Source: Sipunculus nudus (lineage: Eukaryota > Annelida > Sipuncula > Golfingiida > Sipunculidae). From it: DNA of 64,000 bases. The DNA is taken from positions 2,317,318-2,381,317 of the forward strand of contig CM049314.1 in NCBI GenBank assembly GCA_026874595.1, written 5' to 3'. The notes below the pieces were generated by a model. The model was not told the origin of the DNA. It worked only from the letters and a program-made list of their open reading frames with translations, and made no database searches. This document shows positions 4,900-63,774 of the stretch, piece by piece (position 1 is the first letter of the stretch; each line of letters begins with the position of its first letter). The translations under genes were made by a program, and so were the position numbers.

Positions 4900-7800
4900 C
4901 AAAAATATGCAGGAAGACTTTCAAAAACGAAAAAAAGAGTTTCAATCTGCAACCGTTGGCCGGTCTGGTATTTAGTAAAATGTTCGATAGGTAACCACTG
5001 ACCATTTTTCATTGACCAGTGAAAAATTTCAACTTGTAACCACTGAGAGGTCTAGTATCTGGGACTCTTCAGACACTTAAAAATTTAATGAAATTATACA
5101 CCAGCATTGGAATAACAGAACAAGTAAAGCTGTTGGGGGATTTCCGTATGGAAAATCTATATCTTGTTTTCACAGGATGTGTTAAAATCATATATTTCTT
5201 TCTCTCTCCTATTTGAAAATGCTTCCGGTTTATCAATCAGGAAACACTGGGAATAGCTTTACGAAACGCGTGGTTATCTTTAAATGTATTTGGTGCTATG
5301 GTACTTCTAATCATCTTCAATCCTTCTGCATGTGGTAAAATAGGTCTATCAGACATTAACATATGATAGGCACCATGTAAAAAAAGTACTTTAAGGCCAA
5401 AAAAATAAAAGGGTATGGTTCTCAGGCACTTTTTTTCAGAAATCAATGCGGGCGGGCGGTATTTTATTTTTGACCTTTTTTTGTATGTTTCGATAAAATG
5501 TTATATGATCAGGGAAAAGCGGGTAAATGACAGGTTTCTTCTTGCTAAGCAGGCAAAAGCACTACATAACAAAGGAAAACGTATCGAAATTGTATTATTT
5601 TACCATTTTGAATGACAAAATCACAATAAAAATGTTTGATGCGGGGGGTTAAAATTGACGCGGGAGGTGCCTGAGAACCACACCTTTTATTTTTTTTGGC
5701 CTAATTATTCTGGAGAGCTTTAAATACTTAATTAGGTTAGCAGTCACTGTATAAGTAAAGAGAATAGTGATAAAACTCAAAACAATGTTGTATCATTTTC
5801 GGTAAGATACTTAATACTAAAAATTCTGCGTCATTAAAAATGACCACACTTCCATTTACCGACGGTGTTAGGTCTGATTTTACTTGGAAGTTATGAATAA
5901 TTAAATGTATGTTATTTTAAACTTACCGGCGGCTGGTGGTCCTAGTAGTGATCCAATTCCATCACCAATCATTAAAAGTCCGAATGCACTGTTCAGTTTT
6001 TGCACTCCAAATATCCTTGTTAGCACCACAGGCATGACCGCCACCTGAATACCAAAACAGACCCCGTATAAAGCTGCGTAAACCATCAGGGTCGCGAGAA
6101 AGGGTTTCAGGGGAACCAACAAAATGGCGCATCCAGCTCCCGTAGTGCTCAGACCATATAACAAAAGTCGGTCGTAACGTGGAGCATTTGGAACGAAACC
6201 AATCACCATCTTACCTAGGAAATTTGTGAGGCCCACCATGGAGACAAGCCATGGAACGCCATCTTTGGATACACCATGCGTTTTGGCATAATCTGGAAGC
6301 AATACTAAAAGTATCAATGATCCCGTGTTCCACATAATGTTACAAAGGACAAGTATCCATTGTCGGCCATCCTTGAAGAGAGATAAGTCAAATATTTTTC
6401 TCCTCTGTTTTATTTCTTTAGTTGTATGTTGCGATGAACTGCCTTCTATTGAACTTTCCTTGGGGTTGTCTGTATCTTCTTTTTGAATACTGATTGGTCG
6501 CAGTAAAGATGAGGCCACACACATGTTGAGACAGATTCCTGCTGAAATCATATACGCCCCGCGCCACCCGAACAGACGGATCAACTGCCGCAATATCGGT
6601 GGCATGGCGAGTGTCCCGGCTCCAACACCCGCAGTACACAGAGCCACAGCCAGAGGTCGCCTCGTGTTGAAGTAATATCCCACAATCACCACGCTGGGAA
6701 CATAGACCAGTCCAAATCCAAGCCCTTCCGTTTATAAGTAAATTAAAAATCAGTATATTTGTTAATTTCAACGAATTATTATTGTCTTTTGAACCTGGGT
6801 TTGGCTTGTATGTTATCAATCATTTTAATTTCAAATAATTTTCCCGTAAGTCACATGTTCGTTTCGCTAAAATATTAAACATTGATCTAATCAACCCGCA
6901 GAAACTCAGAGACATATTGTATTATAAGTCCACAGATTTAAAATGAATATAAAAACAAGGAGAAGTCTGCGTAATGGGAAAAAAAAGTTGGGTTCAGAAC
7001 TTGGTTTTACATGGTTTTCCTCTGACCGACCTCGCTGAACAGTCGTTTCTAGAGGAAAACATTTTTTGCGGTAAAATAAATAGAAATAATACATATTCTA
7101 TCGCTAAATGTGTTGAATAACAAATGTTGAAATGGAATCTGGTCGCGTGACTTTACATACTTTAAACTAATTAAGATTTTGCTTTATTTAAAATTGAATG
7201 GGATTATTGTATTGACATTTTAACAATTGTTTTCTTCATTCAAGAAATGTAGCTCTATGGTCGTTACTTCATTTCACCATTAGAGGTTTCTGTAACCTGT
7301 GCAACGCCACTTACCCATAAGAATTCCATTGCTAATAAATAGTATATAGATTTGTGTCGCGAAGGTACTAATTATACACCCAGCCGTCGCCAAGAGGGCG
7401 CCACAGGTCACAGTTGCTCGGAATCCGAACCTGTAGGTAAGTATAGTGGAAAAAGGTCCTGTAAATAAACGGAAAAGTTTATAAACAGAAATGTTTATGG
7501 TTGAAAAAAGGTCTTATAAATAACCGGAAATGTTTATAGTGGAAAAAGGTCCTGTAAATTTACGGAAATGTTTACAAACGGAAATGTTCATAGTTGAAAA
7601 ATGTCATGTAAATAAACGGAAATGTTTATAAACGAAAATGTTATAGTGGGAAAAGGTCCTGTAAATAAACGGAAATGTTTAAAACTTCCATGGGGACAGA
7701 AATAAAGAGCTGATATAGGTAGTCTGTGTCAGGGGACAAGGTGACCAGATAACCATATCTTTAAGAATCCTTTGGCGAATTTGACCAGAGCACATTACCA

Positions 7801-10800
7801 AGGACCTGGACTTCATTTGCAAAAAAATTGATCCATGAAAAATGAGGAAATCTGTAGAACAATAATGCTCGTGTATGTAATATAGCTTAGAATATCTCAG
7901 AATTCCTTGCGACAGCACTTATTTCCTTTTAGATTGTTACTTTTACTGTCCTTAATTTGGTATTTAAAATAATTAACTCATGGAGAAATTCACATAATCT
8001 CTTAAATTTATTTGTTCATTTTTCCATATCGAATAGCAAACTGAATTGAACATAAAAATATGCCAAAAATAAATTTCAGCGATAATCTGAAACAAAAAAA
8101 AAAAAAAACAGAAACAAATTAGCAACATCGAACCTGTTCCAAAGAGCAGTCCTGTAGTGATAGAACCAGTGATGGCGGTTGTTCCTTTTCCTTCCTGGAA
8201 TGCATCTAATAATTCAATGAATAGAACACCAGCAGAAAAAGCTATCCCTAAGGCGACGAACTGCAGAAAGAACGAGGCAGCGACCACCACCCAGCCGTAA
8301 CCACCGTCAGGGGGCGCTGCATACCCTAACCCCCATCCCTGTCGCCGCAACAGCCTGTCGTAAAAAAAAAGAACTAAAAATTGTCAGTTTCACAAATACA
8401 CCGATATATACAAATACATTGGCACATAAAAGATACACATATAAAAGTATAAACCGCTCCTCTCCGACATGTCTTAATTACTATTAGGGCTTCACGGCCA
8501 AGAGCTGTGTCACAAATGTACCAATATCCCATTATGTGCAATATAATTTGTATATTAGTATTTTAAACTTAGTTCGAGCATTCTTACATCGATCAGCACA
8601 CATGAATGAGCAAAATTATGTAATAAGCATATTGTTATATACATGTATTCTTAAAATGGAATATCAGGTTTGACAGTGTATCAAACTTTCAATAGGTTCA
8701 ATAATCTGATAATAAACAAAAGTTGACGTGTTTCCTCAATACCATCTGATATGTTGCAGTTCTAGTTATTTTCAAACATCGTAAACTCATACATTTGATC
8801 CGATTAATTAATATAAATATGTAATCTAGCTATTATTTAGTTAAACTGGGGACCAATGGGTCTCGACGCTCAGCTGCATTTTTCTATAAGGATATATGTT
8901 TATGAGGTTTTCCAAAATATTGGTCCTGTGATAAGTTTGAAGCCAACTTGTCTACCTAAACTGGAGTTATAATCCATAAACTAATTTGTGAATGGATGGG
9001 CCCTGTGACCTTAACCTTTGACCTTATGACCCCAAAATCAAAAGGAAACTTCCCCTATTGGCAGGTGCACCACATGTTGATGATGGAAGGATTGAGATGA
9101 AAAGTTTGGCTTAAAATGCATCCAAAATCTCTCTAAAGTAGTGGGTCCTGTGACCTTGACCTTTGATCTCATGACCCCAGAATCAACAGTTCTTACTTTA
9201 GTGTTTGGCCATATATAAGTCAAGTTTGAAACCAATATTTCAAACCAAACTGGTGTTATCATCTTGAAACTAATATGTGGATTGATGCCCCCATGACCTT
9301 GACCTTGTGACCCCTAAATCCATAAGTTACTGCGACTATTGGCAGGTGAGCAACATCTGGAAGATAGAATGTTTGGGACAGAAAGGTTGGCTAAAAATAC
9401 ATCAACAATCTTTTTAAAGAAGTGGATCCTGTGACCATGACCTTTGGCCTTATTACCCCAAAAATCAAAAGGGTTCTTACATTATTGGTGGGTCTTATAT
9501 AAGTCAAAATTGAAACCAATATGTCTATCCGAACTGGAGTTATCAACCAGAAACAAATATGTTGACAGATGGGCCCCTTTGACGATGACCTTTGACCCTG
9601 TGACCCCCAAATCAATCAGTTTCTTCCCCTATTGGTAGCTCAGCTAAATGTACATGATGGAAGGTTTTGGATGGAAAGTCTTACTTAAAATGCATCCCCA
9701 ATCTTTTTAAATAAGTTGGTACTGTGACCTTAACCTTTGACCTCATGACCCCATAATTGAACATAATCTTCCCCTATTGGCAGGTAAGCAATATCTTGAA
9801 GATGGAAGGTTTGGGATGAAAAGTTTGCCTTCAAATGCATAAGAAATGATTCCTGTGACCATGATCTTTGACCGTTGGACCCCAAAATCCACACGGTTCA
9901 TACTTTAGTGGTGAGTCATATATGAGTTAAGTTTGAAACCAACATGTCAAACTAAACTGGAGTTATCATCTGGAAACTAATTTGTGAACAGATGGCCCCT
10001 GTGACCTTGACCTTTGACCTTGTGACCCCAAATTCATTTATGCTCTCTCCATACTGGCAAGTCAGCTAAATGTGCAAAATGGAAAGTTTGGGATGAAAAG
10101 CTTGGCTTAAAATGCAGCCATAATCATTTAAAAAAAGTGAGTCCTGCGACTTTGACCTTTGACCTCATGACCCCAAAATCATATAGGTTCTTGCTTTAGT
10201 GAAGGGTCATATGCAAGTCAGGTTTGAAATCCATGTGTCAATACAACCTGGAGTTATCATCTGGAAACAAATTTGTGTGGATGGACGGATGCACAGACAG
10301 ACAGACAAATAGACAGACAGACAGGGTGATAACTATATGGCATCCACTTGTGATCAATAAACACACCAGTTTTTGGGACACTATATGTAATTACAGCTGA
10401 GAAACTGACATGATTGTTGTCATTTTATAGTAAAATAAAAAATATTGGTTAAAATAACAAAAAATACAGGTGGCGCCAACACTTTTCGGGAACTGACAAG
10501 ACTAGTCATGGTCAATATTCAAGGCAAGATTCATTTCAATCCATGCATTAATTATCAAGATATTGGAGGTTTTGTATTATATTTTTTATTATTCTGGGGG
10601 GTACTTTCAAGCCCCATAGCTCGGAGGATATAGGTCGCAGTGACCTACTTTCAGGTTTCCAAAGAGATTTTTTTATTGACCTCCCTGGATATTCACTTAG
10701 AGGTTTCTAGGTCCAGCAGTTACGATTTGTGCCCTGCTAACGAACGACCGGAAGCCCGGACGCCCGGACGGACAACGGACAAAGCGCCATTCCTATAACT

Positions 10801-27943: not shown

Positions 27944-29433
27944 TTATGTACGCTCTGACTCCCACATGTCCTGTATTTTATTTCTTCCTAAGCCATGCTT
28001 TCGTAACAGAACCCGAGTGCCCGTGGCTAGAATGGTTGCGTCAGCGTTACGATCATACCTGGCTTTTCTCTGTCTTGCATTCTCTGCTGCATTTTCACTG
28101 GCACGTTCCATAGCATCATTTATTCTCTCATAATGATCGGCTACCCAAGCATCGATGTTCCGATTTCGTAACTGAATGTTCATCACGTGGCTTCCTAACA
28201 AATGATCGATTGGAAGTGACGGTTCGCGCCCAAAGAACAATAAATGGGGTGAATAACTTGTCGCAGAATGTGGTGTTGCATTATATGCAAACAGCAGCTC
28301 AGGTAAAAACTCTGGCCATCGATACTTCTTCTCCTCTGGCAAGGTGCGTAATAAATCATGCATCGTGCGGTTAAACCGCTCAACTTTGCCGTTTCCTTGT
28401 GGATGAAATGGCGTAGTGTGTGATCTGTCGATGTCATAAATTTTACACAGTTCGGCGATAATATGACTTTCAAAGTTCCGCCCCTGGTCACTGTGAATCC
28501 GGCGTGGTATTCCATAGCGGAGAAACCATTCTCGGACTAATGTTTTTGGCACTGTGCGTGCGCGCTGATCTTTGGTGGGGACAGCGATGGTAAATTTACT
28601 AAATCAACAGACATTACTAGCACATTTTCGTATCCGCCGAGCCCTTGTTCTAGCAAGGTGTAATCTATTGCCACCACATCAAGTGGTCGGTTTGCTCGAA
28701 GGTGTTGCATCGATGCGGTTACACGCTTACCTCTTTTTGACACAATGCACCTTGTACATTGTGCACAATGTCTTTCCACATCTTTTCTCAATGTTGGCCA
28801 GTATGCACGCATTTGAATTAGGGAAGCAGTACTATCGATACCCTGGTGTCCCATGTCATCGTGCATTGCATTCAGAACTTGCTGTTTTAAGATTTGTGGA
28901 AGGAGTAGTTGCTCATAATCCCGTCCTTGTAGTTTAACCTTTCGATACCAGACCCCTTGGTGTTGCGTGACGCGATTCCAGGAGCGCAGATGTTTCCTGA
29001 CGTCTGTTTGTTCTTTAATCATTTGCCTCCGAGTGGGCAAATAACCCAGTTCTTTGAAATAGATGAGGCGTTTGATGGTGGGATCTTCCTTCTGTGCCCG
29101 TATCAATCCATCTATTGGTAGTGATGGTAAAGTCTTTGGCACATCGGTTTCTACTCTTTGTGATCTAGTCCTGACTTCATTTACACAAGTTTCTATCATA
29201 AAATTCTCTATTTGTTTTGACATGTTGGACGGAATGGGACTGCCACCCGCATTGTTCTCTAGCTGAGTTTGCACATCGATAATTTCCACGGTTACTTGCT
29301 CCATTGGGCAAACTTGATCAGACGTTGTACTTTCAATCGAATGTTTGCGTCTGGAAAGAGCATCTGCACTTGCATTTTCTCTCCCTGGCCTGAACTTTAT
29401 GTCAAATTGAAAAGTGCCAAATCGGCAACCCAT
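27944..29433 (-). pseudogene. Gypsy integrase region (pol C-terminal part), frameshifted
   Basis: Minus-strand frame 29433-28537 starts at the end of RNase H (ADALSRRKHS), carries the HHCC zinc-binding region (H, H, then CAQCTRC) and the first catalytic Asp (DVVAIDYTLL). Frame 28552-27944 has the second catalytic Asp (HSDQGRNFE) and Glu (GNGKVERFNRT). So the D,D,E triad is present but split over two frames near 28540. The C-terminal part (VLLRKHGLGRNKIQDMW) breaks again near 27960. Integrase joins element cDNA to host DNA; this copy is inactive. Confidence 0.9.
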
Positions 29434-30608
29434 CTCGTTTCTGTCGCACCTAAACGAGCTGTTGATTTCAAATAGGACAAGGGATTATTGTCTGTAAAAA
29501 CAGTAAAGAAAGAACCAATCAATAGATCTCTGAATTTCTCTGTGATCGCCCATTTGAGTGCAAGCAGTTCGAGTTTAGTGTTGGAGTAATTATCCATGTT
29601 ATTTTCATGTTTGTGAAGGGATCTGCTGGCATAGGCAATGACTACTTTCTGTCCATTCTGTTCTTGAGATAATTCGGCACCAAGACCTTCGTGACTAGCG
29701 TCCGTTTCCAGAAGATATGCTTTAGTAAATTCTGGATATCCAAGAACCGGGGCTGTGGTCAAACATGTCTTGACTGTATTAAACGCCTCCTCACATTCTG
29801 TGTTCCACGTTTGGTAAAACCACATTTGTTTCAACCCTTTTTCTTTTCTTGCATTTCCGTTGACCACCCAACAACAAATTCAAAGATTTTACAATCTGTG
29901 CAAAATTCTTAATGAAACATCGGTAGTAACTTGCAAGCCCCAAAAAGCTGCGAAGTTCAGTGATGGTTTTAGGTGTTGGCCATTCACTTACTGCTTTGAT
30001 CTTTCCGGAGTCTGGGGAAACACCTTCTGCACCAACAACATGCCCCAGATAAGAGACGGACTTGTGTCCTACATGACACTTACTAGGTTTTACCTTTAAG
30101 CCGAGGTCACTGAGGCGGGTCAGACTTTGTCTAGTCGATTGGACATCTCTTCAAATGTCCTACCGAAGACAAGAATATCGTCCAAATAAACAAGAACCTG
30201 ATTAAAGTTCATATCACCAAGTCCCTTATCCATTAGCCGCATAAATGTGCCTGGGGCGTTGCATAATCCGAAAGGCATCCTCAGGAATTCATACAACCCA
30301 CCAGTGCCTACACGAAATGCAGTTTTTGGAATATCCTCTTGAGCCATTGGAATTTGATGATACCCATGTGCAAGGTCCAGTGATGAGAAGTAAGTAGCTC
30401 CATGTAATGCATTTAGAGCCTCTTCGATACGTGGCAGAGGATAAGCGTCTTTGATAGTTTTTGCATTCAGTTGCCTATAGTCCACACATATTCTCAATTT
30501 ACCATCTTTCTTTCTGACCAAATCCACAAGTGCAGCGTATGGGGAACAACTGGGTCTTATAATCCCTTGGTTCATTGCTTTTTCCAGTATTCGCGAACCT
30601 CCGCCCAC
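29397..30608 (-). pseudogene. Gypsy reverse transcriptase and RNase H, frameshifted
   Basis: Frame 30608-30120 carries the RT blocks: KKDGKLRICVDYRQLN, FSSLDLAHGYHQIP, MPFGLCNAPGTF and the catalytic box VYLDDI (residues 140-145 of the frame). The stop at 30120 and further frame changes lead through the connection region (LGLASYYRCF, about 29930) to frame 29867-29397 with RNase H (TDASHEGLGA, YASRSLHKHE, TDNNPL). A one-base disturbance near 30595 also separates RT from the upstream protease frame. Confidence 0.92.
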
Positions 30609-31762
30609 TGTGTCGGTGATATCATACGACGAGGAACCTTGATAGGTGACTCATCACTCAGTCGAATTTTGTGTTCGATGTCACTACAGAGTCCAACATC
30701 CTCATCATGTTTACTGAAAATATCAACGTGACGCTCAATGATTTGGGCTAACGATTCTTGTTGTGTCTGATTTAAGTCCTCATCGATGTCCATCTGAGAC
30801 AAGAGCTTCTCTAAATCAGTCCCTTCCATTTGGGACGGAGAAACCTGAGCTTCCTCTCGGCTAACGCGAGTAACTCTCACCGCTGAGGGCATATCGGCGG
30901 GTTCAACACTCGCTAACCGAATGCCAGGGTGAAGGTTAACATCACTCTCTGAGAAGTTGGTAACTTGAACCGGAATAGAGCCAGCCTTTCCAACATCCAC
31001 CACACACCTTCCTACCATCACACCACTTGGCAATGGGACCATTTCTGAACTTATTGACTCAACTATAGCTGTAAAAGTTATTGCTTGCCCACTAGCAGTC
31101 TGACCAATTATAACTTTTGTAGATCTTGCCGGAATCAATTCTGGTGCCTTTCCTGCGAGTCGAACATACGAAAATGATGGCGGTGAGGGGATGTCCACTT
31201 TAACTTCATACATTGACAATATATCAGCAAGTCCCAACTCCTCTGGTCTTACTTCATCTCGCCATATCTTTTTGATGTCTTGACCCAGCTGTTCTTTCAT
31301 CGCACGTAGAATGTTAGCACCAATTAAACCTGGTACGTCTTTACGACGTTCCCCTTGTTCTCCACATGGGTCATCCACGATGAGGAAGCCTAATTTACTG
31401 AAGGTACATTCCCCGACAGTTACGTCCAATTCAACATATCCGTGAAATGGAATTGGCAAGCCTTGTGTACTTGTCAATTTTATGTAGGAGGAAAATTCTT
31501 TCAACACTTCGTCATTCCAGTGTCTCTTAAAGAAGCTCATCGCAATTGTACTGACCGCAGCGCCAGTATCAATAAGGCATTTCGTCTCTACTTCTCCAAG
31601 TAAAACTGTCATGATGGGACATTCGCCAACTATTCTACTCATATCGGGTCGCTGGTTACATGTGGCGGTCCTGACCTGACCCTTGGCACAGGACCATCTT
31701 AGTTTGACGGTTCGGTTGTTTGTTGTGGGCAATCGCGTTGATAATGTCCCTTGCCTTGACAT
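30572..31762 (-). pseudogene. Gypsy pol N-terminal part with aspartic protease
   Basis: A 396-codon open frame. The retropepsin motif IDTGAAVSTI (catalytic Asp at residue 65) is clear. The frame overlaps the gag end by 64 nt and lies in the -1 frame relative to gag, the arrangement used for -1 ribosomal frameshifting. I did not find a canonical heptamer in the overlap. It ends at 30572 in a frame break before RT. Confidence 0.88.
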
Positions 31763-32679
31763 TTAAAACAGGTCACCTCGGATATTGGTCTCCTTTTTCT
31801 TGGCGCGACTGGTCTGTTGAATTGCCCATAAAACCTAGGGGGTAGCGCAGATGGCAGAGTTTGACCTTCTCGCATGGCCCTCACCTCAAGCGTCAATTCT
31901 TGTAACAGGGAGCTTTGGGCCTTGAGTACTTCATGAAGTGATGGCTCTGGGGACTGCTGTTCTACTGCTACTTTTTGTATAGCAACTGCACCAGTCTGCC
32001 CTTCTGGCCCAAGCCACTCTAAAGCAGCCGTCCTCATTTCGAAAAATGACATATCAGGACACTCCCTGTTAAGACGCCTCATCTCTCTCTTTAAGTCAGC
32101 TTGTTGGACAGGTTCAGCAAGCCGCTCTTTCAAAACCCCTTCATTCTGTTCACATTTGGAGGATCCTGATTCATTTTGATTGATCATGCGGTGCAAGCGA
32201 TGAAGCTCCAAAGAGCAACTTATCACCGATTGTCCAGGTTTCTGCACGTTACTATGAAATTGGCTTCGCAACTGGGCTTTGGTTTTATTCTATCCAAAAA
32301 CTGCTGTAATCACACTCAGAATTTTCTCCGTTTTCTCGTAACATGTTGGACCTCGGGCCAGCAGCTCCTCTCGTGCGTGCCCTTTTATATGTTCAAGAAG
32401 AAAACCGGCCTTTTCTCTCTCTGAGTGGAATGCTCTTGTGGCCAATCTCCCTCTAGCCTCACTGCACCAATCTTGCACATCCTCTTTTCCCGTAAAGGGT
32501 TGGAGTGGGGATGTCTGGTTCAAATACACAACTGGAACATTCTGATTTTTAAAGGACACTTCTTCATCCCCATCACTCACTGTTTCTTCTTTTTCCAAAG
32601 GCATCTTGCACCGAGGGGTCAGCCTTTTCCTTTTTTTTTCAAAGAGATTAATAAAAGCAGATCCTGCCGACTGCGCCAA
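31699..32679 (-). pseudogene. Gypsy gag with CCHC zinc knuckle and internal stop
   Basis: Frames 32679-32290 and 32271-31699 lie in the same phase and are separated by one TAG (32292-32290) after ITAVFG. The C-terminal part ends in a nucleocapsid zinc knuckle CFKCQGKGHYQRDC (C-x2-C-x4-H-x4-C). The N-terminal part holds the capsid-like segment (FTGKEDVQDW). The start codon choice is uncertain because the frame runs up to the primer-binding region. Confidence 0.85.
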
Positions 32680-32680
32680 A
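32657..32680 (-). other. Primer-binding region of the gypsy element
   Basis: Directly after the 5' LTR end (..TCTCTTTCA) the minus strand reads TT then TGGCGCAGTCGGCAGGA, the expected position and TGG start of a tRNA-primed binding site. The tRNA is not identified. Confidence 0.65.
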
Positions 32681-32931
32681 TGAAAGAGATAACAACTCGG
32701 TTCTTTTGAATCTACTATTCTTAAATCATCTATTTATTGTAAGAGGAAGGATAAAGGCTGACCACCTCTTTTACAGCATACCGGTGGTGCACATCAGTGC
32801 TCCAGTATGTAACAAAACCTTGGCTGCTATCAAACCCCTGGACCATATATGATAGCTGATACAATATGAAGTATAAACAAACCTACAGAGTACATCAAGT
32901 TAATGTTGCTGTGTATTTTGACTTTTTTTCA
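32681..32931 (-). repeat. 5' LTR of the gypsy element
   Basis: 251 bp matching the LTR at 27276 except for the missing ~124-bp block and scattered changes. TG/CA ends are present. Confidence 0.9.
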
Positions 32932-55000: not shown

Positions 55001-58000
55001 CATTGATTTAATTTTCACAGCATGTAAACATAAATATTTAGTTTGTCTAAATCTGAAATTTGAAAATAAAAGCTTGAAAATTAAGCTAGTTATTGATTTT
55101 TTTTCTGTAGTCACTTGCTTTGATTACAGATGCAGGGTCCCACTCCAGGTCACTGGAAGTCAGTTATGCCAGGGTTTCTGATTTGTTACAGTCACTGGGG
55201 GAGATCCCCTGCTGTGACAGGTGTACAGTTATTCTCATATCACCACCCTAATATTTTTGTGGTAAAAAATAAATAAACATTTGTATGCATGATGTGGTGT
55301 TATCTGACAAGATTGAGATTTATGATGATGCAATTGAGAATTATGAATCAACTTTTATATTCAGATATATATGTTAAATTGGAAATGTATAGAAATATAA
55401 ACTTAAATTAAAAAATAATTGATGTGATAAAAAAATCAGGATTTAATACAAACATTTGTTTATTATTTTCCTGCCTCAGCAGAATTTGAGATCAGGCTTT
55501 GTTTGCCCTGTTTTATGTTGTTAATTAGCTATATTTCAACTGTACACATTTCATAAAAAAATACATATATATTTAATAATATATATTATACAAAAAAATA
55601 GATTCAATTGAACAAATGTGTAAACTACTGAAATGTCAACAGTTAATCGAAAAACCAACTAATGATCATGGTAATAGTACAGATCATTTGTTCACAAACT
55701 GCTCACATGCTTTAGTTTCAACATTAGGAAACACATGGTCAGGTCACAAAATATTTTTTGCAACAATTTCTTGCTCATCAATACAAACCAATCATACAAA
55801 CCAACCATGGCCTTTATTACCTCTTCCTCTTACACTTTATCTCCATTTGATATTATTTTAGATTTTTACCTTCAAGGTTTACGTCAGCTGAGCACAGTGA
55901 CCCATAGGTCCCTTGTTTTGTTTATTCAGAGCCATCTTGCCACTGACCCCTGTCATGTCTGTCGATATACATTGTATCATGAAATTTAAGATTAAAAATA
56001 ATTTAAGATGGTAAAGTAATCATTATTTTCAAATGATATGCAAGCTATAAGTATATTTTTAGGGCCCAGCTTGACAAGCAGTGCCCTATAATGATCATTG
56101 TGTCAGTCCGTCCTTCCTTCCATCGGTCCTTCCGTCAGTGACACTTTCTTTCCGATGCCATAACTCAACAACAACATACTGCAGCTTTCCCAACTTCACC
56201 AGGATGATTGGTACCTATGAGGGCTCCAGACCTATTGAATTAAAGACTGGTCGGAATTCAAATATGGCCGCCACAGCCCATACACTGATTTTCTTTTGCA
56301 TGCAATAACTCAACAACAACAAACACACTGCAGCTTTCCCAAATTCACCGAGATGATTGGTACCTATGACAGCTCCAGACCTATCGAATAACAGACTTGT
56401 CGGAATTCCAATATGGCCGCCACAGCCCCAATCACACGCGTTAACTCAACAACAACATACTGCAGCTTTCCATAATTAACAGGGATGGTTGGTACCTATG
56501 AGGGTTCCAGACCTGTTGAATAACAGACCTGTCGGAATTCCAATATGGCTGCCACAGCCCAATTGCTCTTTTTCTATCGCGCCTGATAACTCAACAACAA
56601 CCTACTGCAGCTTTCCTAAATTTACATTGATGATTGGTACCTATAAGGCCCCAGACCTATTGAATTACAGACATGTTGGAATTCCAATATGGCCACCACA
56701 GCCCGATTGCTGATTTTCTTTCACGAGCAATATTTCAGAAACCTACTGCAGCTTTCCCAATTTCACAGGGATGATTGGTACCTGTGAGGGATCCAGACCT
56801 ATTGAATTACAGACCTGTCTGTATTCCAATATGACAGCCACAGCCCAATCGCTGATTTTCTATTGGGCGCTATAACTCAACAACAACCTCCTGCAGCTTT
56901 CCCAAATTCACAGGGATGATTGGTACCTATAAGGGCCCCAGACCTATTGAATTACAGACATGTTGGAATTCCAATATGGCTGCCTTCTCCCATTCGCTGA
57001 CTTTCTTTCACGAGTGAAAACTCAACAACAACCTACTGCAGCTTTCTAAAATTCACAGGGATGATTGGTACCTATAAGGGCTCCAGCCTATTGAATTACA
57101 GACCTGTCAGAATTCCAATATGGCCGTCACAGCCCGTTTGCTGATTTTCTTTTGCAAGCGATAATTCAAAAACAACCTACTGCAGCTTTCCCAAATTCAC
57201 AGGGATGATTGGTACCTGTGAGGGATCCAGACCTATTGAATAAAGACCTGTCTGAATTCCAATATGGCTGCCACAGCCCAATTTCTGATTTTCTATCACT
57301 CGCAATAACTCAACAACAACCTACTGCAGCTTTCCCAAATTCACAGGGAAGGTTGGTACATTTAAGGGCTCCAGACCTGTTGAATTACAGACCTATTTGA
57401 ATTGCAATATGGCTGCCACAGCCTGATCGCTGATTTTCTTTTGCATGCAATAACTCAACAACAACCTACTGCTGCTTTCCCAATTTCACAGGGATCATTG
57501 GTGCCTATGAGGGCTCCAGACCTATTTAATTACAGACTTGCTCAAAATCAAATATGGCTAACAGACTACATTCGGTGATTTTCTATTGCATACATTATTT
57601 CAGACATATCTTCTGTAATATCTTTTGATCCAGTAGGATTTTTTTCCTAATGCTTATGGATAAAAACCTGTTTTTGTTTGTCATATTTTTCAAATTTTTC
57701 ACCCATATGTAAACTAGTCCAGCACTAGCAGAAATGCGGGGCCCTCTGAGGACCATTGTCCAACCACATCTAGGTATTCGTTTAAATTTTTGCCACTTTT
57801 TTTAGTTTGCCAGAGTACTGGATGTACACATTTACAAGGTAATATTTTGTAATAAAACCTCTTTTTAAAAAAAATATATCTTTTTTCTAAATCCCATAAT
57901 GAAATTGAACATTTGATATGGACAAGTTGAAGCCCTTTAAAACCTATCCATTTATACTATTGAACAAGTGGTTTTTGTCAGATTTATTATTTTTTACAGA

Positions 58001-61000
58001 AAAGAAGAAGTCTGATGAAGAATTTGAGATCCTTGACCTGACAGATAAGAACTTCCTGCAGAAAGTGGTGGCTGACCTGTCAAAAGCTGGAGCAGCAAAG
58101 CAGATAGCAGTGGGTGGTGCTAGTGGCTGGTGAGGACTTACTTATACAGGACAGAATCAGTAACATCAGCTCTCGAGTAACTTCCTCCTCACACAGGCCT
58201 CTGTGGCCTTCTGGGGGGTCCTAGGGGTTATGACCCAGCAATGGGATTGATTACACACCCAAGACCGGTAGGTGTGGTTACTGTGTTACACTGAGTCCTG
58301 TTGATGCCAGGATAATCTCACATGTGTAAGTCCCTGTCACATAGCGAGTCCAAAACCTGAATGAAATTATTCAGATGAATCATGTACATAGTACTCATAT
58401 AAACAGGCAATAAAAATGTAGGAAGTTACCTCCTCAAAAAATCTTAAGGAAAAAAATACTTTGTTCAGCACCTTATGTTACTGTGGTGATAGAGTTTCTA
58501 GCTTGCCCAGTAAACCAGGCTGTTCATATTTTTATTTTTACCTAAAAATTGGTGTAACAATCTGGTATTTTGCCTATGACCACCAACACACAATTCAGAT
58601 GTTCTGTTGCTTTTCCAGAAAATAAGCTCCAGGGTCAGTGGAGATATTGCTAGAATATGTTAAGGAGATGAGAAGATTTTCTACAAAATCCATAACTACA
58701 CTAGTAGCAACCTTTTAAATATGGCCATTGTGCTGATCAGATAAATATTCAATCCTGATCAGTTTTGAAGCTCACATTGGGCTTTGTGATTGAACAAAAT
58801 TCACTTTATTAAAATAACTAATTGTGTATCACAGCTAAATGCACACACATGTTTCACCCAACACACTAGTTGACATGAACAGTGTGCTTTTAAGAGAATA
58901 TACAGACTGCATATATATGTATTTTGACTCCAGAAAACAAGGGTGTTTTTAAAAAGAAACTCTCTGGCAAGCTTGACAGTTATAAATAATATTAATAATT
59001 ATAAGAACTCTTCTCTTCCAGGGAATTAAACCAGCTGGACTTGCACTAGGTGTGAAATCTGATTAGATGAACACGGAAAACATTTGTGTGACTTTTGACA
59101 TTAACTTTGGTTAAACATTATGTAGGAGACTATCTGCATTCATGGTGCAGTCAGCATGTATGTAAAGCATGGGTTAGACATATTGCCCATAATGACCTAT
59201 TTCCCATATTGATAGCTTTCCCTTGTTGACAGATTTCCCATGTTGACAAATTTCCCATGTTGACAGATTTCCCATATTGACAGATTTCCCATATTGACAG
59301 ATTTCCCATATTGTATTGATATTGATGTACAGAAGCCTAAAAGGGAATCTGTTAGCATAACACTATAAATGGTCTCTAAGCATGGATGAATTTTATTTTG
59401 TAATACTGTATCTTCCTATTGTTAACTTAGTGTTCAGTAGTTGCTTAATATAACAGAAACTATATTATGATAATCTGTACACTTCTGATACTTGAATTGT
59501 ATAATGCTCATGGAGGTTTGGTTATTTTCATTTACTCCTATTTTAGTATCATGTCAGTACTTTCACTGTTGCTAAGCTGCTGTCACTATTGGCAACAGAT
59601 TATATGATCACTCTCCATACATAAGTATATTTTTGTCCTCAGGGTAACAGGCTGTCTGGCAGGGAAGATAGGAAAGGCTGTCGCAGGGACAGTAGGGGGC
59701 ACAATATTGTTATTACAGGTTGGGTTCCTTAATGTTTTGTCTGTTATATTTGTATTCTGTTTCTTTCATATGAACATTTGTCTAAGTGGTTTGCTGGATC
59801 TTATACATTAATTATTAACATCTTTTTAATTAAATTTTAATTAAAGTAGCTATATATCTTGATTGCAGATTTCAAACTGAAGGAGTTACACACAAAATGG
59901 GTTAGACACATGAGGATATTATGCTTTGAGATATTGTGAAATTTCATTTTCAACAGATATGCTATGATAATCACTCTTTATTAAATAAATAAACTTAAAA
60001 ACTTGTAAAATCTTAAAAGATCTACTGGTTATAGAAACGCAATCAAATTCCAGAATGCAGAGAACATTTGTAGCTTTCAGAATATGTGTGTAAAGTTTCA
60101 CCAGATTAAGAAGTTTTAACTGTTTTGCACATTAAAGATAAATTAAAGCACAATTTTTGCACAATCCATGGACAACCCATGGACCCTGAGACCAAAGTGG
60201 CTCCAGTCTCTATGTCTCATGTCGATGCTCTGGAGATGGCAAGCCAGTGTTAGACAAGTGTTCATATATATCTGTTGTTCTCTACTCTGTTTCTTCCTGT
60301 TGCAGTTCATAACATTTCATGGGGACCCTGCAGTAACACATTCAAAAGACTATTTCTGGACCAGGATAATTAATTTACTACCCATTAATCCATGTCCTGA
60401 CTCCTTACAATCCATGTAGCTGACAGCATAGTATATACAGTGACTCCTTACAACCCATGTAGCTGCCAGCATAGTATATCCAGTGACCCCTTACAACCCA
60501 TATAGCTGCCAGCTTAGTATATCCAGTGACTCCTTACAACCCATGTAGCTGCAAGCATAGTATATCCAGTGACTCCTAACAACCCATGTAGCTGCCAGCA
60601 TAGTATATCCAGTGACTCCTTACAACCCATGTAGCTGCCAGCATAGTATATCCAGTGACCCCTTTCAATCCTAGTAGCTGCCAGCATAGTATATCTAATG
60701 ACCCCTTACAACCCATGTAGCTGCCAGCATAGTATATCCAGTGACTCCTTACAACCCATGTAGCTGCCAGCATAGTATATCCAGTGACCCCTTACAATCC
60801 ATGTAGCTGCCAGCATTGTATATCCAGTGACTCCTTACAACCCATGTAGCTGCCAGCATAGTATATCCAGTGACTCCTTACAATCCTTGTAGCTGTAAGC
60901 ATAGTATATTCAGTGACCCCTTACAATCCTTTTAGCTGCCAGCATAGTATATCCAGTGACTCTTTACAACCAATGTAGCTGCCAGCATAGTATATCCAGT

Positions 61001-63774
61001 GACTTCTTACAACCCATGTAGCTGCCAGCATAGTATATCCAGTGACTCCTTACAATCCTTTTAGCTGCTAGCATAGTATATCCAGTGACTCCTTACAACC
61101 CATGTAGCTGCCAGCTTAGTATATCCAGTGACTTCTTACAACCCATGTAGCTGCCAGCATAGTATATCCGGTGACTCCTTACAACCCATGTAGCTGCCAG
61201 CATAGTATATCCAGTGACTCTTTACAACCCGTGTAGCTGCCAGCATAGTATATCAAGTGACTCCTTACAACCCATGTAGCTGCCAGCTTAGTATATCCAG
61301 TGACTACTTACAACCTATGTAGCTGCCAGCATAGTATATCCAGTGACTCTTTACAACCCATGTAGCTGCCAGCATAGTATATCCAGTGACTCCTTACAAC
61401 CCATGTAGCTGCCAGCTTAGTATATCCAGTGACTGTTTACAACCCATGTAGCTGCCAGCTTAGTATATCCAGTGACTCTTTACAACCCATGTAGCTGCCA
61501 GCATAGTATATCCAGTGACTCCTTACAACCCATGTAGCTGCCAGCATAGTATATCCAGTGACTGTTTACAACCTGTGTAGCTGCCAGCTTAGTATATCCA
61601 GTGACTCCTTACAACCCATGTAGCTGCCAGCATAGTATATCCAGTGACTCCTTACAACCCGTGTAGCTGCCAGCATAGTATATCCAGTGACCCCTTACAA
61701 CCCATATAGCTGCCAGCTTAGTATATCCAGTGACTCCTTACAACCCATGTAGCTGCCAGCATAGTATATCCATTGACTCTTTACAGCCCGTGTAGCTGCC
61801 AGCTTAGTATATCCAGTGACTCCTTACAACCCATGTAGCTGCCAGCATAGTATATCCAGTGACTCTTTACAGCCCGTGTAGCTGCCAGCTTAGTATATCC
61901 AGTGACTCCTTACAACCCATGTAGCTGCCAGCATAGTATATCCAGTGACTCCTTACAACCCATGTAGCTGCCAGCATAGTATATCCAGTGACTCCTTACA
62001 ACCCATGTAGCTGCCAGCATAGTATATCCAGTGACTCCTTACAACCCATGTAGCTGCCAGCATATTATATCCAGTGACCCCTTACAACCTGTGTAGCTGC
62101 CAGCTTAGTGTATCCAGTGACTCCTTACAACCCATGTAGCTGCCAGCATAGTATATATAGTGACTCTTTACAGCCCGTGTAGCTGCCAGCTTAGTATATC
62201 CAGTGACTCCTTACAACCCATGTAGCTGCCAGCATAGTATATCCAGTGACTCTTTACAACCCATGTAGCTGCCAGCATAGTATATCCAGTGACTCCTTAC
62301 AACCCATGTAGCTGCCAGCATAGTATATCCAGTGACTCCTTACTACCCATGTAGCTGCCAGCATAGTATATCCAGTGACCCCTTACAACCTGTGTAGCTG
62401 CCAGCTCAGTATATCCAGTGACTCCTTACAACCCATGTAGCTGCCAGCATAGTATATATAGTGACTCTTTACAGCCCGTGTAGCTGCCAGCTTAGTATAT
62501 CCAGTGACTCCGTACAACCCATGTAGCTGCCAGCATAGTATATCCAGCCTGAGTTATCCATTTGCCAATCATTATCTCAGCCAACAAGGTTGTCATTTCT
62601 GTTCATAAGAATTTTCCAAAAAGTTCCCAATGAATTTTGGAGAAATTTTATGAAAGAATTGGCCATGAATAAGCTCATTACATTTTTTTGATTATTTATA
62701 TATGAACTGGCAATAAAAAGTAAAAGTTAATTAAAATTTTGGCTTAAATGTTAAATTTTTGTATTAATGTAGATAAATTTTCCAGGAAAAGTCATTGTCA
62801 GTCAAATTTTTGGATGATAAGTTTAGGTGAGCATATTGATATGGTGTTGGGTATTTGTAGAGGTGGCGGCTCGAGTGATTTCTAGTTTTAGCTATATTTG
62901 TTTTAGTGTATTGTTTGCTTGAAATTATGTCATTGAAGCTACATGTTAGAATCACTTGTTAAACACTCTAAATATCTTCAAGCTATAAAAGTGGCTCTGT
63001 CATTCGAAATGAGAAAAAAAAATCAAACAATTACCCAGGATACTGGTGGTCATAAATTTTCCTGCTAATCAAATCCATTTCGGTAGTCAAGCTTTTTATA
63101 TATTTCATTGAATTTAACTTTAAAGGGTCATTAACACTTGAAAGATTAGAGTTTTTTTCCAACTGAGGCAGACTCAGAGACTTGGCCCTCAGAGTTTATT
63201 TCTGCAACATCCTTATTTCTCTAACACAGTCATTTAAATGTATATCTTTTTCAGATCGGTGGTATTTGGTTGCAGTTAGTCACCCTTATTGCTCATAGGT
63301 GGCAGCATTGAGTTTGCCATTAGCTTATTCAGTTTTCATTCCTCAATCTTCATTTCTCTTCAGTGAAAACTTGCATCATCCATTATACCTTATACAATTT
63401 AGCAGGTGGCAGCACTGCCTCTGCATTTTAACAGCATTTGCACTTGCACAGTTAATCATCACAATGGTCATCCTTTCATGTGTATAAATCACTGAGTTCC
63501 TTTTTAGTTTTGCTTACATAATTGATTTTGCTAGATTTCTTTGGCACAAAATTTTATAAACCCTATGATGTTCTTTTTTCATAGTTACTGCAGGGTCTTC
63601 AGTCACCCCTCTTTCAGCCATCACAGAATGCCCCATCCATGACCAGACCTCTGGTGTAATGTTCAGCAGTCATATGCATTGCCTCAGCTTGCTTTCAGGT
63701 GCGCAGGCTACCTTAGCGGGAATGTCGGAAAAAGTGCCGCAGCTGCCCTGGGTGGGAGTCTCCTTATACTTCAG
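48978..63774 (+). CDS. FUN14-domain (FUNDC1-like) gene, 5' part, with an alternative exon pair
   Basis: Exons seen: 48978-49023 (start codon at 49014), 58000-58129, then either 59643-59718 or 63699-63774; the gene continues beyond the window. Phases join as 1/2, 2/1 and 0. The N-terminus reads MAVEKKKSDEEFEILDLTD. FEIL (residues 12-15), preceded by acidic residues and a serine, matches the LC3-interacting region of FUNDC1 (YEVL in human), the site that binds LC3/GABARAP in mitophagy. AAKQIAVGGASGW aligns with the FUN14 domain start, and the next exon gives the first membrane segment. FUNDC proteins sit in the outer mitochondrial membrane with the N-terminus in the cytosol. The N-terminal region is shorter than in human FUNDC1. 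The 9-kb first intron holds a hAT-like element, a dispersed repeat and two tandem arrays. Confidence 0.88.
49692..54174. mobile_element. hAT-like non-autonomous element holding a tandem array
   Basis: The left end CAGGGCTGGTATGATTTGAA and the right end (reverse complement CAGGGCTGGTAAAAATTTGA) form inverted termini, followed on both sides by ATTTAAAT-rich subterminal repeats. The flanks CAGTAATG (49684-49691) and CAGCAATG (54175-54182) match at seven of eight bases, an 8-bp target duplication as in hAT transposons. No transposase is seen; the centre is the array at 50060-53640. It lies in intron 1 of the FUNDC-like gene. Confidence 0.85.
50060..53640. repeat. ~325-bp tandem array, 10 units, with 984-bp higher-order repeat
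   Basis: The palindrome AGGTGGCGCCACCT (or a one-base variant) recurs at about 50385, 50708, 51044, 51366, 51702, 52028, 52350, 52686, 53010 and 53333. A three-unit block of 984 bp is repeated essentially without change (51001 onward equals 51985 onward; 52969 onward is a slightly diverged third start). Each unit also has GGGGTCATGACCTTTCC and GCCTTGACCTTGAATATTGC. Both array borders carry GTCTGG(A/G)GATACTATGG (50072 and 53598). Confidence 0.95.
54395..55918 (+). repeat. Dispersed repeat, copy 2
   Basis: Nearly identical to 40727-42617 over its whole length except for the missing C run and the ~350 bp after it (junction near 55250), and an extra GTCCGTCC at the start. It lies inside intron 1 of the FUNDC-like gene. 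Confidence 0.92.
56060..57780 (+). repeat. ~144-bp tandem array, about 10 units, with YY1-like motif
   Basis: GGGATGATTGGTACCTATGA or variants recur at about 56203, 56352, 56483, 56630, 56769, 56914, 57059, 57203, 57347 and 57490. Units contain ACTCAACAACAACCTACTGC, CAGACCTATTGAATTACAGA and CCAATATGGCNGCCACAGCC. The block is bordered by AGGGCCCAGCTTGAC at 56060 and GCGGGGCCCTCTGAGG at 57737. Confidence 0.93.
58000..58129 (+). CDS. FUNDC-like gene, exon with LC3-interacting motif
   Basis: Acceptor TTTTTTACAG| after a T-rich tract, donor GGCTG|GTGAGG. The 130-nt exon reads KKKSDEEFEILDLTDKN, then LQKVVADLSKAGAAKQ and IAVGGASGW. EILDLT and the GG..GW ending match the FUNDC family. Confidence 0.92.
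58130..59205. other. FUNDC-like intron, no feature seen
   Basis: AT-rich intron sequence; no exon, RNA gene or recognisable element found. Confidence 0.5.
59206..59320. repeat. 17-bp tandem repeat
   Basis: About six copies of ATTTCCCATATTGACAG with TATT/TGTT variants, within the FUNDC-like intron before exon A. Confidence 0.9.
59643..59718 (+). CDS. FUNDC-like gene, alternative exon A
   Basis: Acceptor TTTTTGTCCTCAG|, donor TTACAG|GTTGGG; 76 nt: one base completes Trp, then 25 codons VTGCLAGKIGKAVAGTVG and GTILLLQ. It aligns with the first FUN14 membrane segment. The length is not a multiple of three, so it cannot be spliced together with exon B without shifting the frame. Confidence 0.88.
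59719..60396. other. FUNDC-like intron after exon A
   Basis: A good acceptor-like string (TTTCTTCCTGTTGCAG, 60289-60304) is followed by an open stretch, but the predicted peptide (ITFHGDPAVTHSKDYF) has no FUN14 similarity, so no exon is called. Confidence 0.45.
60397..62547. repeat. 43-bp minisatellite, about 50 copies
   Basis: The unit is CCCATGTAGCTGCCAGCATA + GTATATCCAGTGACTCCTTA + CAA, repeated over about 2.15 kb with point variants (CATAG/CTTAG, ACTCC/ACCCC/ACTCT, CATGT/CGTGT). Variant order suggests local multi-unit duplications (for example the CCCGTGTAGCTG-containing blocks near 61783, 61865, 62173 and 62475). It lies between the two alternative exons of the FUNDC-like gene. Confidence 0.97.
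62548..63698. other. FUNDC-like intron before exon B
   Basis: AT-rich. TTTTTCAG at 63247-63254 is acceptor-like, but the following frame (IGGIWLQLVTL) does not match FUN14 and has no clear donor. No other feature seen. Confidence 0.45.
63699..63774 (+). CDS. FUNDC-like gene, alternative exon B
   Basis: Acceptor TTGCTTTCAG|, donor CTTCAG|GTGCTA; also exactly 76 nt in the same phase, giving CAGYLSGNVGKSAAAALG and GSLLILQ. With the carried Trp it reads WCAGYL, closer to human FUNDC1 (WCAGF) than exon A, and keeps the VGK, GG and LLxLQ positions. It therefore encodes the same domain segment as exon A in a diverged form. Confidence 0.88.

What the first reader, a model, noticed from the sequence alone, without database searches (positions are those of the whole stretch)
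59643..63774. Mutually exclusive exon pair in a FUNDC1-like mitophagy receptor gene
Two exons 4 kb apart have exactly the same length (76 nt) and the same entry and exit phases, and both encode the first FUN14 membrane segment (WVTGCLAGKIGK versus WCAGYLSGNVGK, both ending in L-Q). As 76 is not a multiple of three, using both would shift the frame, so only one can be used per transcript. Human FUNDC1, as I know it, has one such segment. The alternative exons would change residues in the membrane helix next to the LC3-binding N-terminus.
Basis: partly seen in the sequence, partly recalled or inferred. Interest (0 to 1): 0.85.

Follow-up and report, generated by a model that had tools for sequence, protein, structure and literature searches.

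The report
Swappable exon pair in mitophagy receptor
An invertebrate's apparently single gene for the mitochondrial clearance receptor FUNDC1 carries two interchangeable versions of one exon, and the swap changes a lysine that in humans contacts the fusion protein OPA1, so splicing could alter how mitochondria are marked for fission and removal.

Summary
Exons A (59643-59718) and B (63699-63774) are both 76 nt, enter in phase 2, leave in phase 0, have AG/GT borders, and encode homologous FUN14 segments (12 of 26 residues, 42 of 76 nt identical). DNA fetched beyond the window completed the gene: single exons 4 and 5 follow B, one exon 2 precedes A, so B is not part of a second gene. Mouse Fundc1 also has a 76-nt exon at what looks like this place (PMC5063418). 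Both exons together give a stop at B's sixth codon; neither gives TGA at the junction. Best reading: a mutually exclusive exon pair; no RNA data were available. New here: the exon aligns with human residues 62-87 and contains the whole 69-73 OPA1-binding loop; the residue aligned with human K70 is K in A and N in B. The same genome carries the published coq-2 e/a exclusive pair, an oxygen-linked splicing switch in helminths, as positive control and analogue. That A/B toggles OPA1 binding is inference (about one in three).

The parts
58000..58129 (+). FUNDC exon 2 (shared): KKKSDEEFEILDLTDKNFLQKVVADLSKAGAAKQIAVGGASG-W; ends phase 2 (TG|)
   Evidence: splice borders ttttttacag|AAAAGA and TGGCTG|gtgagg
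58023..58034 (+). LIR-like motif F-E-I-L, aligned with human Y18-E-V-L21
   Evidence: translation; alignment with recalled human FUNDC1; motif definition in PMC5526904 (passages)
59643..59718 (+). Exon 3A, 76 nt, WVTGCLAGKIGKAVAGTVGGTILLLQ; lysine at the position of human K70
60398..62547 (+). 43-bp minisatellite, 50 copies, in the intron between A and B (no role shown)
63699..63774 (+). Exon 3B, 76 nt, WCAGYLSGNVGKSAAAALGGSLLILQ; asparagine at the position of human K70

Best explanation
This is one FUNDC1-type gene with a mutually exclusive pair of alternative exons 3 (the confidence below is for this sentence). Shown: two homologous, intact, same-length, same-phase exons lie between a single set of shared exons, and of the four combinations only the two with exactly one of them stay open. 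Inferred: each transcript uses one, and double inclusion or double skipping is removed by nonsense-mediated decay. Inferred and less certain (about one in three): the swap replaces the OPA1-contact loop (human 69-73), so the A form (GKIGK, with K70) holds OPA1 as human FUNDC1 does, while the B form (GNVGK) binds it weakly and is biased towards fission and mitophagy. The choice may follow tissue or oxygen state, as for coq-2 e/a.
For: Gene anatomy and exon uniqueness. Mouse Fundc1 has a 76-nt exon followed by a 129-nt exon and the last exon (coordinates in Table 2 of PMC5063418, passages); here 76, 120 and last, and the 9-nt difference equals the 3-residue gap in the alignment, so the 76-nt exon looks ancestral and duplicated here. 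Frame logic: A+B stops at nt 224 of the model, upstream of junctions at 282 and 402; neither gives TGA at the junction. Selection: dN 0.48, dS 1.70 (NG86); 32 of 50 first/second codon positions match against 10 of 26 third positions; neutral control 191 of 300,000. Each exon is a little closer to human FUNDC1 (recalled) than to the other: A 14, B 16, A-B 12 of 26; against human FUNDC2 (recalled) 13 each. Loop 69-73 binds OPA1, K70 matters, K70R keeps binding, and K70 is conserved in nearly all animal FUN14 proteins (PMC5526904, passages); under stress FUNDC1 and OPA1 separate and fission follows (PMC9358025, passages). The same genome holds the coq-2 e/a pair with the published L/S versus F/A residues.
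Against: No transcript data of any kind. The codon-position contrast is borderline (Fisher p = 0.051) on 26 codons; of three dN/dS methods tried, only NG86 gave a value. 14 of 26 positions differ between A and B, so a difference at any one named position, K70 included, is not surprising by itself, and K73 stays in both. B is less hydrophobic than A through the TM1-loop part (19-residue means down to 0.08 against about 0.6), which could mean weaker membrane insertion. No complementary elements stood out in 500-nt flanks: best of 15 region pairs was matched by 8 of 100 shuffles. Exon 1 was not located. No other invertebrate gene could be compared.
Confidence: 0.87

Rival explanations
1. One exon is a relic: the gene uses only A or only B, and the other is an old duplicated exon no longer spliced in.
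For: No transcripts were available; 26 codons give limited power (Fisher p = 0.051).
Against: At dS about 1.7 an unused exon would be expected to have lost frame or splice sites: 12,930 of 300,000 neutral runs kept frame plus both splice dinucleotides, 191 of 300,000 also kept 12 of 26 residues. Both forms pass the FUN14 cut-off, A only just (23.5 against 22.5).
Confidence: 0.08
2. B belongs to a separate downstream FUNDC paralogue, or A to an upstream one.
For: Tandem duplication is a common origin of similar exons.
Against: Single exon 2 upstream, single exons 4 and 5 downstream, no tblastn hit of human FUNDC1 better than E 1 between A and B. Whole-genome searches: exon 2 + B + exon 4 gave 3 places, B DNA 1, A peptide 1, all here; the A-form protein gave 5, four here and one on C7 at E 5.2, 26% identity with a stop. 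Limit: query B did not return A, nor query A return B, so a diverged short exon elsewhere can be missed.
Confidence: 0.02
3. Double inclusion is the point: A+B (or neither) is a poison transcript that lowers FUNDC1 through nonsense-mediated decay, and protein choice between A and B is secondary.
For: Both aberrant combinations stop at once, upstream of later junctions.
Against: Nothing shown; each exon encodes a FUN14 segment over the family cut-off, more than a poison exon needs. Not exclusive with the best explanation.
Confidence: 0.06
4. B is reached from an alternative promoter and first exon inside the A-B intron, so the two forms differ at the N-terminus as well.
For: The intron is 3,980 nt long and was not tested for promoters.
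Against: No FUN14-like exon was found between A and B by tblastn (a non-homologous first exon would escape), and exon 2 joins B in frame.
Confidence: 0.04

Closest known systems
coq-2 mutually exclusive exons 6a/6e (PMC7434440; abstract, passages and section 8 seen)
   Same: Mitochondrial membrane protein gene with two homologous exons swapping a core segment; one exon like the pan-eukaryotic form, the other distinct. Present in this same genome: e 131 nt, a 134 nt, 3,351 nt apart.
   Different: Different protein and outcome (quinone choice); RNA and exon-deletion evidence exists for it. Shared regulation with FUNDC is untested; no 8-mers were shared in the 250 nt upstream of e and A, or of e and B.
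Human FUNDC1 / FUNDC2 and mouse Fundc1 (FUN14 family, PF04930)
   Same: Same order of LIR, FUN14 core and C-terminal GGFLLGLAS; the swapped exon aligns without gaps with human 62-87. Mouse Fundc1 has a 76-nt exon before a 129-nt exon (PMC5063418).
   Different: One version of this segment, as recalled; the passages read do not discuss such isoforms ('isoform' and 'exon' occur 0 times in PMC5526904; 'isoform' 0 times in PMC9358025). Mouse Fundc1 splicing is in print, but for inclusion of the 129-nt exon on SMN loss (Table 2 of PMC5063418, passages).
mrp-1 mutually exclusive exons (named in a passage of PMC7434440)
   Same: Equal-length exon pair in a gene for a transporter tied to mitochondrial B12 uptake in helminths, annelids and molluscs, said there to have arisen independently.
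   Different: Another protein; not examined here.

Membership tests
FUN14 / FUNDC1-like proteins | FUN14 domain over the Pfam cut-off | tested here: met
   B form 29.7 bits, A form 23.5, cut-off 22.5
FUN14 / FUNDC1-like proteins | N-terminal LIR (Y/W/F-x-x-L/I/V) | tested here: met
   F-E-I-L at 58023-58034, aligned with human Y18-E-V-L21; LC3 binding itself untested
FUN14 / FUNDC1-like proteins | K70 in the OPA1-binding loop | tested here: inconclusive
   Met in A (K), not met in B (N)
Mutually exclusive exon pairs | Adjacent homologous exons, same phases, between shared exons | tested here: met
Mutually exclusive exon pairs | Both-in and both-out break the reading frame | tested here: met
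Mutually exclusive exon pairs | Transcripts contain exactly one of the two | not testable with these tools
   No RNA data held
Mutually exclusive exon pairs | A mechanism enforcing exclusivity (steric, U2/U12, intron pairing) | tested here: inconclusive
   3,980 nt spacing speaks against steric hindrance; donors gtgagg, gttggg, gtgcta do not look like the U12 type (consensus recalled); no pairing signal in 15 pairs of 500-nt flanks
Separate tandem FUNDC paralogues | Each copy has its own shared exons | tested here: not met

The most novel reading that the evidence does not exclude
An oxygen- or tissue-linked splicing switch in a facultative anaerobe swaps the OPA1-contact loop of its only FUNDC1: the A form (K70) restrains fission through OPA1, the B form (N70) is released from it, so mitophagy is tuned by exon choice in parallel with the coq-2 e/a quinone switch.
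Probability: 0.25. Interest if true: 0.85.

Novelty: new member of a known kind. Interest (0 to 1): 0.62.

Why it matters
FUNDC1 is described as a receptor switched by phosphorylation and by release from OPA1. A gene in which the OPA1-contact loop itself is exchanged by splicing would give two natural receptor forms, one with and one without the key lysine, and a direct way to ask what OPA1 contact does for mitophagy. It would also add a second mitochondrial gene, after coq-2, in which an animal with low-oxygen metabolism uses mutually exclusive exons.

Tried and rejected
Separate paralogue: rejected as far as the searches reach. A third copy of exon 3 in the 144 kb held: none; apart from A, the best further hit of the B query was E 0.22 on the other strand. 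Intron pairing: 15 region pairs against 100 shuffles each, none convincing; only 500-nt flanks were tested. Shared intron words with the coq-2 pair: none upstream of e/A, e/B or a/A, two upstream of a/B, and two to six downstream in each pair, with no pattern (8-mers, 250 nt). Seven 9-mers were shared between the flanks of A and B, mostly A+T-rich and not pursued. PF04930 over the own genome gave 0 matches at E 0.001 from 3 candidates, although the gene is there: short exons score weakly over 1.43 Gb. A PDB sequence search with the 68-residue B form listed 8 sequences up to E 1, none of them a FUN14 protein. In one search, two of three dN/dS methods gave no value. No other animal genome was in the collections I had, so conservation of the pair was not tested. 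Papers: seven searches were aimed at FUNDC1 or FUN14 and two at mutually exclusive exons or rhodoquinone in molluscs; listings were capped at 15 of 5,350 and 15 of 1,908. Six papers were opened: PMC7434440 (abstract, passages, section 8), and passages only of PMC5526904, PMC9358025, PMC5063418, PMC6765046 and PMC12432130. None of what I saw reports alternative versions of the 76-nt FUNDC1 exon; PMC5063418 does report a different Fundc1 splicing event in mouse, and PMC6765046 gives a single isoform for mouse Fundc2. The other listed papers were not opened, and gene-model databases were not searchable.

Full report
What is there. The window lies in a 1.43 Gb genome at C9:2317318-2381317. Exon 2 of a FUN14 gene (58000-58129) encodes KKKSDEEFEILDLTDKNFLQKVVADLSKAGAAKQIAVGGASG and ends two bases into a tryptophan codon. 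Exon A (59643-59718) and exon B (63699-63774) each complete that codon and add 25 residues, ending on CAG. The window stops 226 bases after B, so I fetched the next 80 kb. There exon 4 (65803-65922 in continued window coordinates, C9:2383120-2383239) and exon 5 (72380-72457, C9:2389697-2389774) finish the protein with ...SFAGGFLLGLAS and a stop. Exon 1 was not found.

One gene, not two. In the 144 kb held, tblastn with recalled human FUNDC1 gave five hits better than E 1, one per exon: exon 4 1.6e-6, B 8.0e-5, exon 5 0.002, A 0.009, exon 2 0.016. Searches of the whole genome gave three places for exon 2 + B + exon 4, one for B DNA, one for the A peptide, and five for the complete A form; all lie at this locus except one of the last five, on C7 at E 5.2 with 26% identity and a stop, which is at chance level. 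The searches have a limit: the B query did not return A nor the A query B, so a diverged short exon elsewhere could be missed. A single FUN14 gene agrees with what PMC5526904 says of invertebrates outside Drosophila (passages).

The 76-nt exon is old. Table 2 of PMC5063418 gives a mouse Fundc1 splicing event whose three exons, by their coordinates, are 76 nt, 129 nt and a long last exon (passages). Here the order is 76, 120, last, and the 9-nt difference equals the three-residue gap in the alignment of exon 4 with human FUNDC1. That the mouse exon encodes the same 26 residues is inferred from this layout. So one 76-nt exon at this place is probably the ancestral state and the second copy the innovation.

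Frame logic. With exactly one of A or B the protein is open to the final stop. With both, the sixth codon of B is a stop, upstream of two later junctions. With neither, TG joins ATC and makes TGA at the junction. So only one-exon transcripts make a full receptor; that the cell actually uses both is inferred.

Is either exon a relic? A and B share 12 of 26 residues and 42 of 76 bases; NG86 gives dN 0.48 and dS 1.70, while two other methods tried gave no value. First and second codon positions match 32 of 50, third positions 10 of 26 (Fisher p = 0.051). Under neutral change to the same divergence, 12,930 of 300,000 runs kept frame and splice dinucleotides and 191 of 300,000 also kept at least 12 residues; an earlier run with a threshold of 13 gave 22 of 200,000. 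Both forms pass the FUN14 cut-off, A narrowly. Against recalled human FUNDC1, A has 14 and B 16 of 26 identities; against recalled FUNDC2, 13 each; against each other, 12. This suggests an old duplication, but the margins are one to four residues.

What the swap changes. By ungapped alignment the exon is human 62-87: the end of TM1, the intermembrane-space loop and the start of TM2. PMC5526904 (passages) states that residues 69-73 bind OPA1, that K70 is important, that arginine there retains binding, and that K70 is conserved in nearly all animal FUN14 proteins. In A the loop reads GKIGK; in B, GNVGK. So A keeps the lysine, and B, slightly the more human-like exon, has asparagine. PMC9358025 (passages) describes FUNDC1 bound to OPA1 at K70 in normal conditions and their separation under stress, followed by DRP1 recruitment and fission. 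I therefore propose that A is the OPA1-held form and B the released form. This is inference: with 14 of 26 positions different, a change at K70 alone is not statistically striking, K73 remains in both, and B is also less hydrophobic through this part, so other effects are possible.

A known analogue in the same genome. PMC7434440 (abstract, passages and section 8) shows that coq-2 has mutually exclusive exons a and e in helminths, annelids and molluscs that make rhodoquinone, and that in parasitic helminths e rises in low-oxygen stages. In this genome COQ2 lies at C10:12252180-12268669 on the minus strand, in 7 of the 35 matches, two of them for the same stretch of the profile: an e form (VTLNWG...YDTIYSHQ, 131 nt) and an a form (MTFNWG...YDTIYAHQ, 134 nt), 3,351 nt apart. 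They bear the Leu/Ser versus Phe/Ala pairs given in the paper; in the a form the two residues are 39 apart, as Phe204 and Ala243 are (my count). Joined to the neighbouring exons, either alone is open over the piece read, both or neither is not. So the anatomy seen in FUNDC is, in this very genome, that of a known exclusive pair, and the animal can probably make rhodoquinone. I found no shared flanking sequence that would tie the two switches together.

How exclusivity is kept is open. Spacing and donor sequences speak against two of the classical mechanisms, and pairing between the 500-nt flanks showed nothing above shuffles. Decay of the double and empty products plus regulatory proteins is the remaining, untested answer.

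Novelty. Mutually exclusive exons are a known kind. What I saw of the literature (nine searches; six papers opened in part) does not report alternative versions of this FUNDC1 exon; a different mouse Fundc1 splicing event is reported (PMC5063418). Most listed papers were not opened, and gene-model databases could not be searched, so unreported annotated isoforms may exist. I file it as a new member of a known kind, with an unusually testable functional proposal.

Noticed in passing
60398-62547: A 43-bp minisatellite of 50 copies (91% matches) fills more than half of the intron between A and B; length variation there could affect splicing.
   Followed up: partly
59177-59313 and 56162-57559: A 17-bp tandem array (8.1 copies) ending 330 bases upstream of exon A, and a 145/289-bp array in the intron before exon 2.
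   Followed up: no
G000:C10:12252180-12268669 (L026, L027): The genome's COQ2 gene carries the e and a mutually exclusive exons linked in print to rhodoquinone synthesis.
   Followed up: yes
G000 contigs C61-C90 (16 contigs with C138): 26 of the 35 UbiA-family matches lie on 16 other contigs, mostly as long stop-free frames and many with identical scores; this looks like bacterial genomes, perhaps symbiont strains, in the animal's assembly.
   Followed up: no
[quoted passage not shown]).
   Followed up: partly
5901-8383, minus strand: Open frames that look like a monocarboxylate-transporter-type membrane protein ([14 protein letters not shown]; name recalled, no family search).
   Followed up: no
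27944-32733, minus strand: Pieces of a Ty3/gypsy-like retroelement (protease, reverse transcriptase, integrase-like frames; recognised by eye) split over several frames.
   Followed up: no
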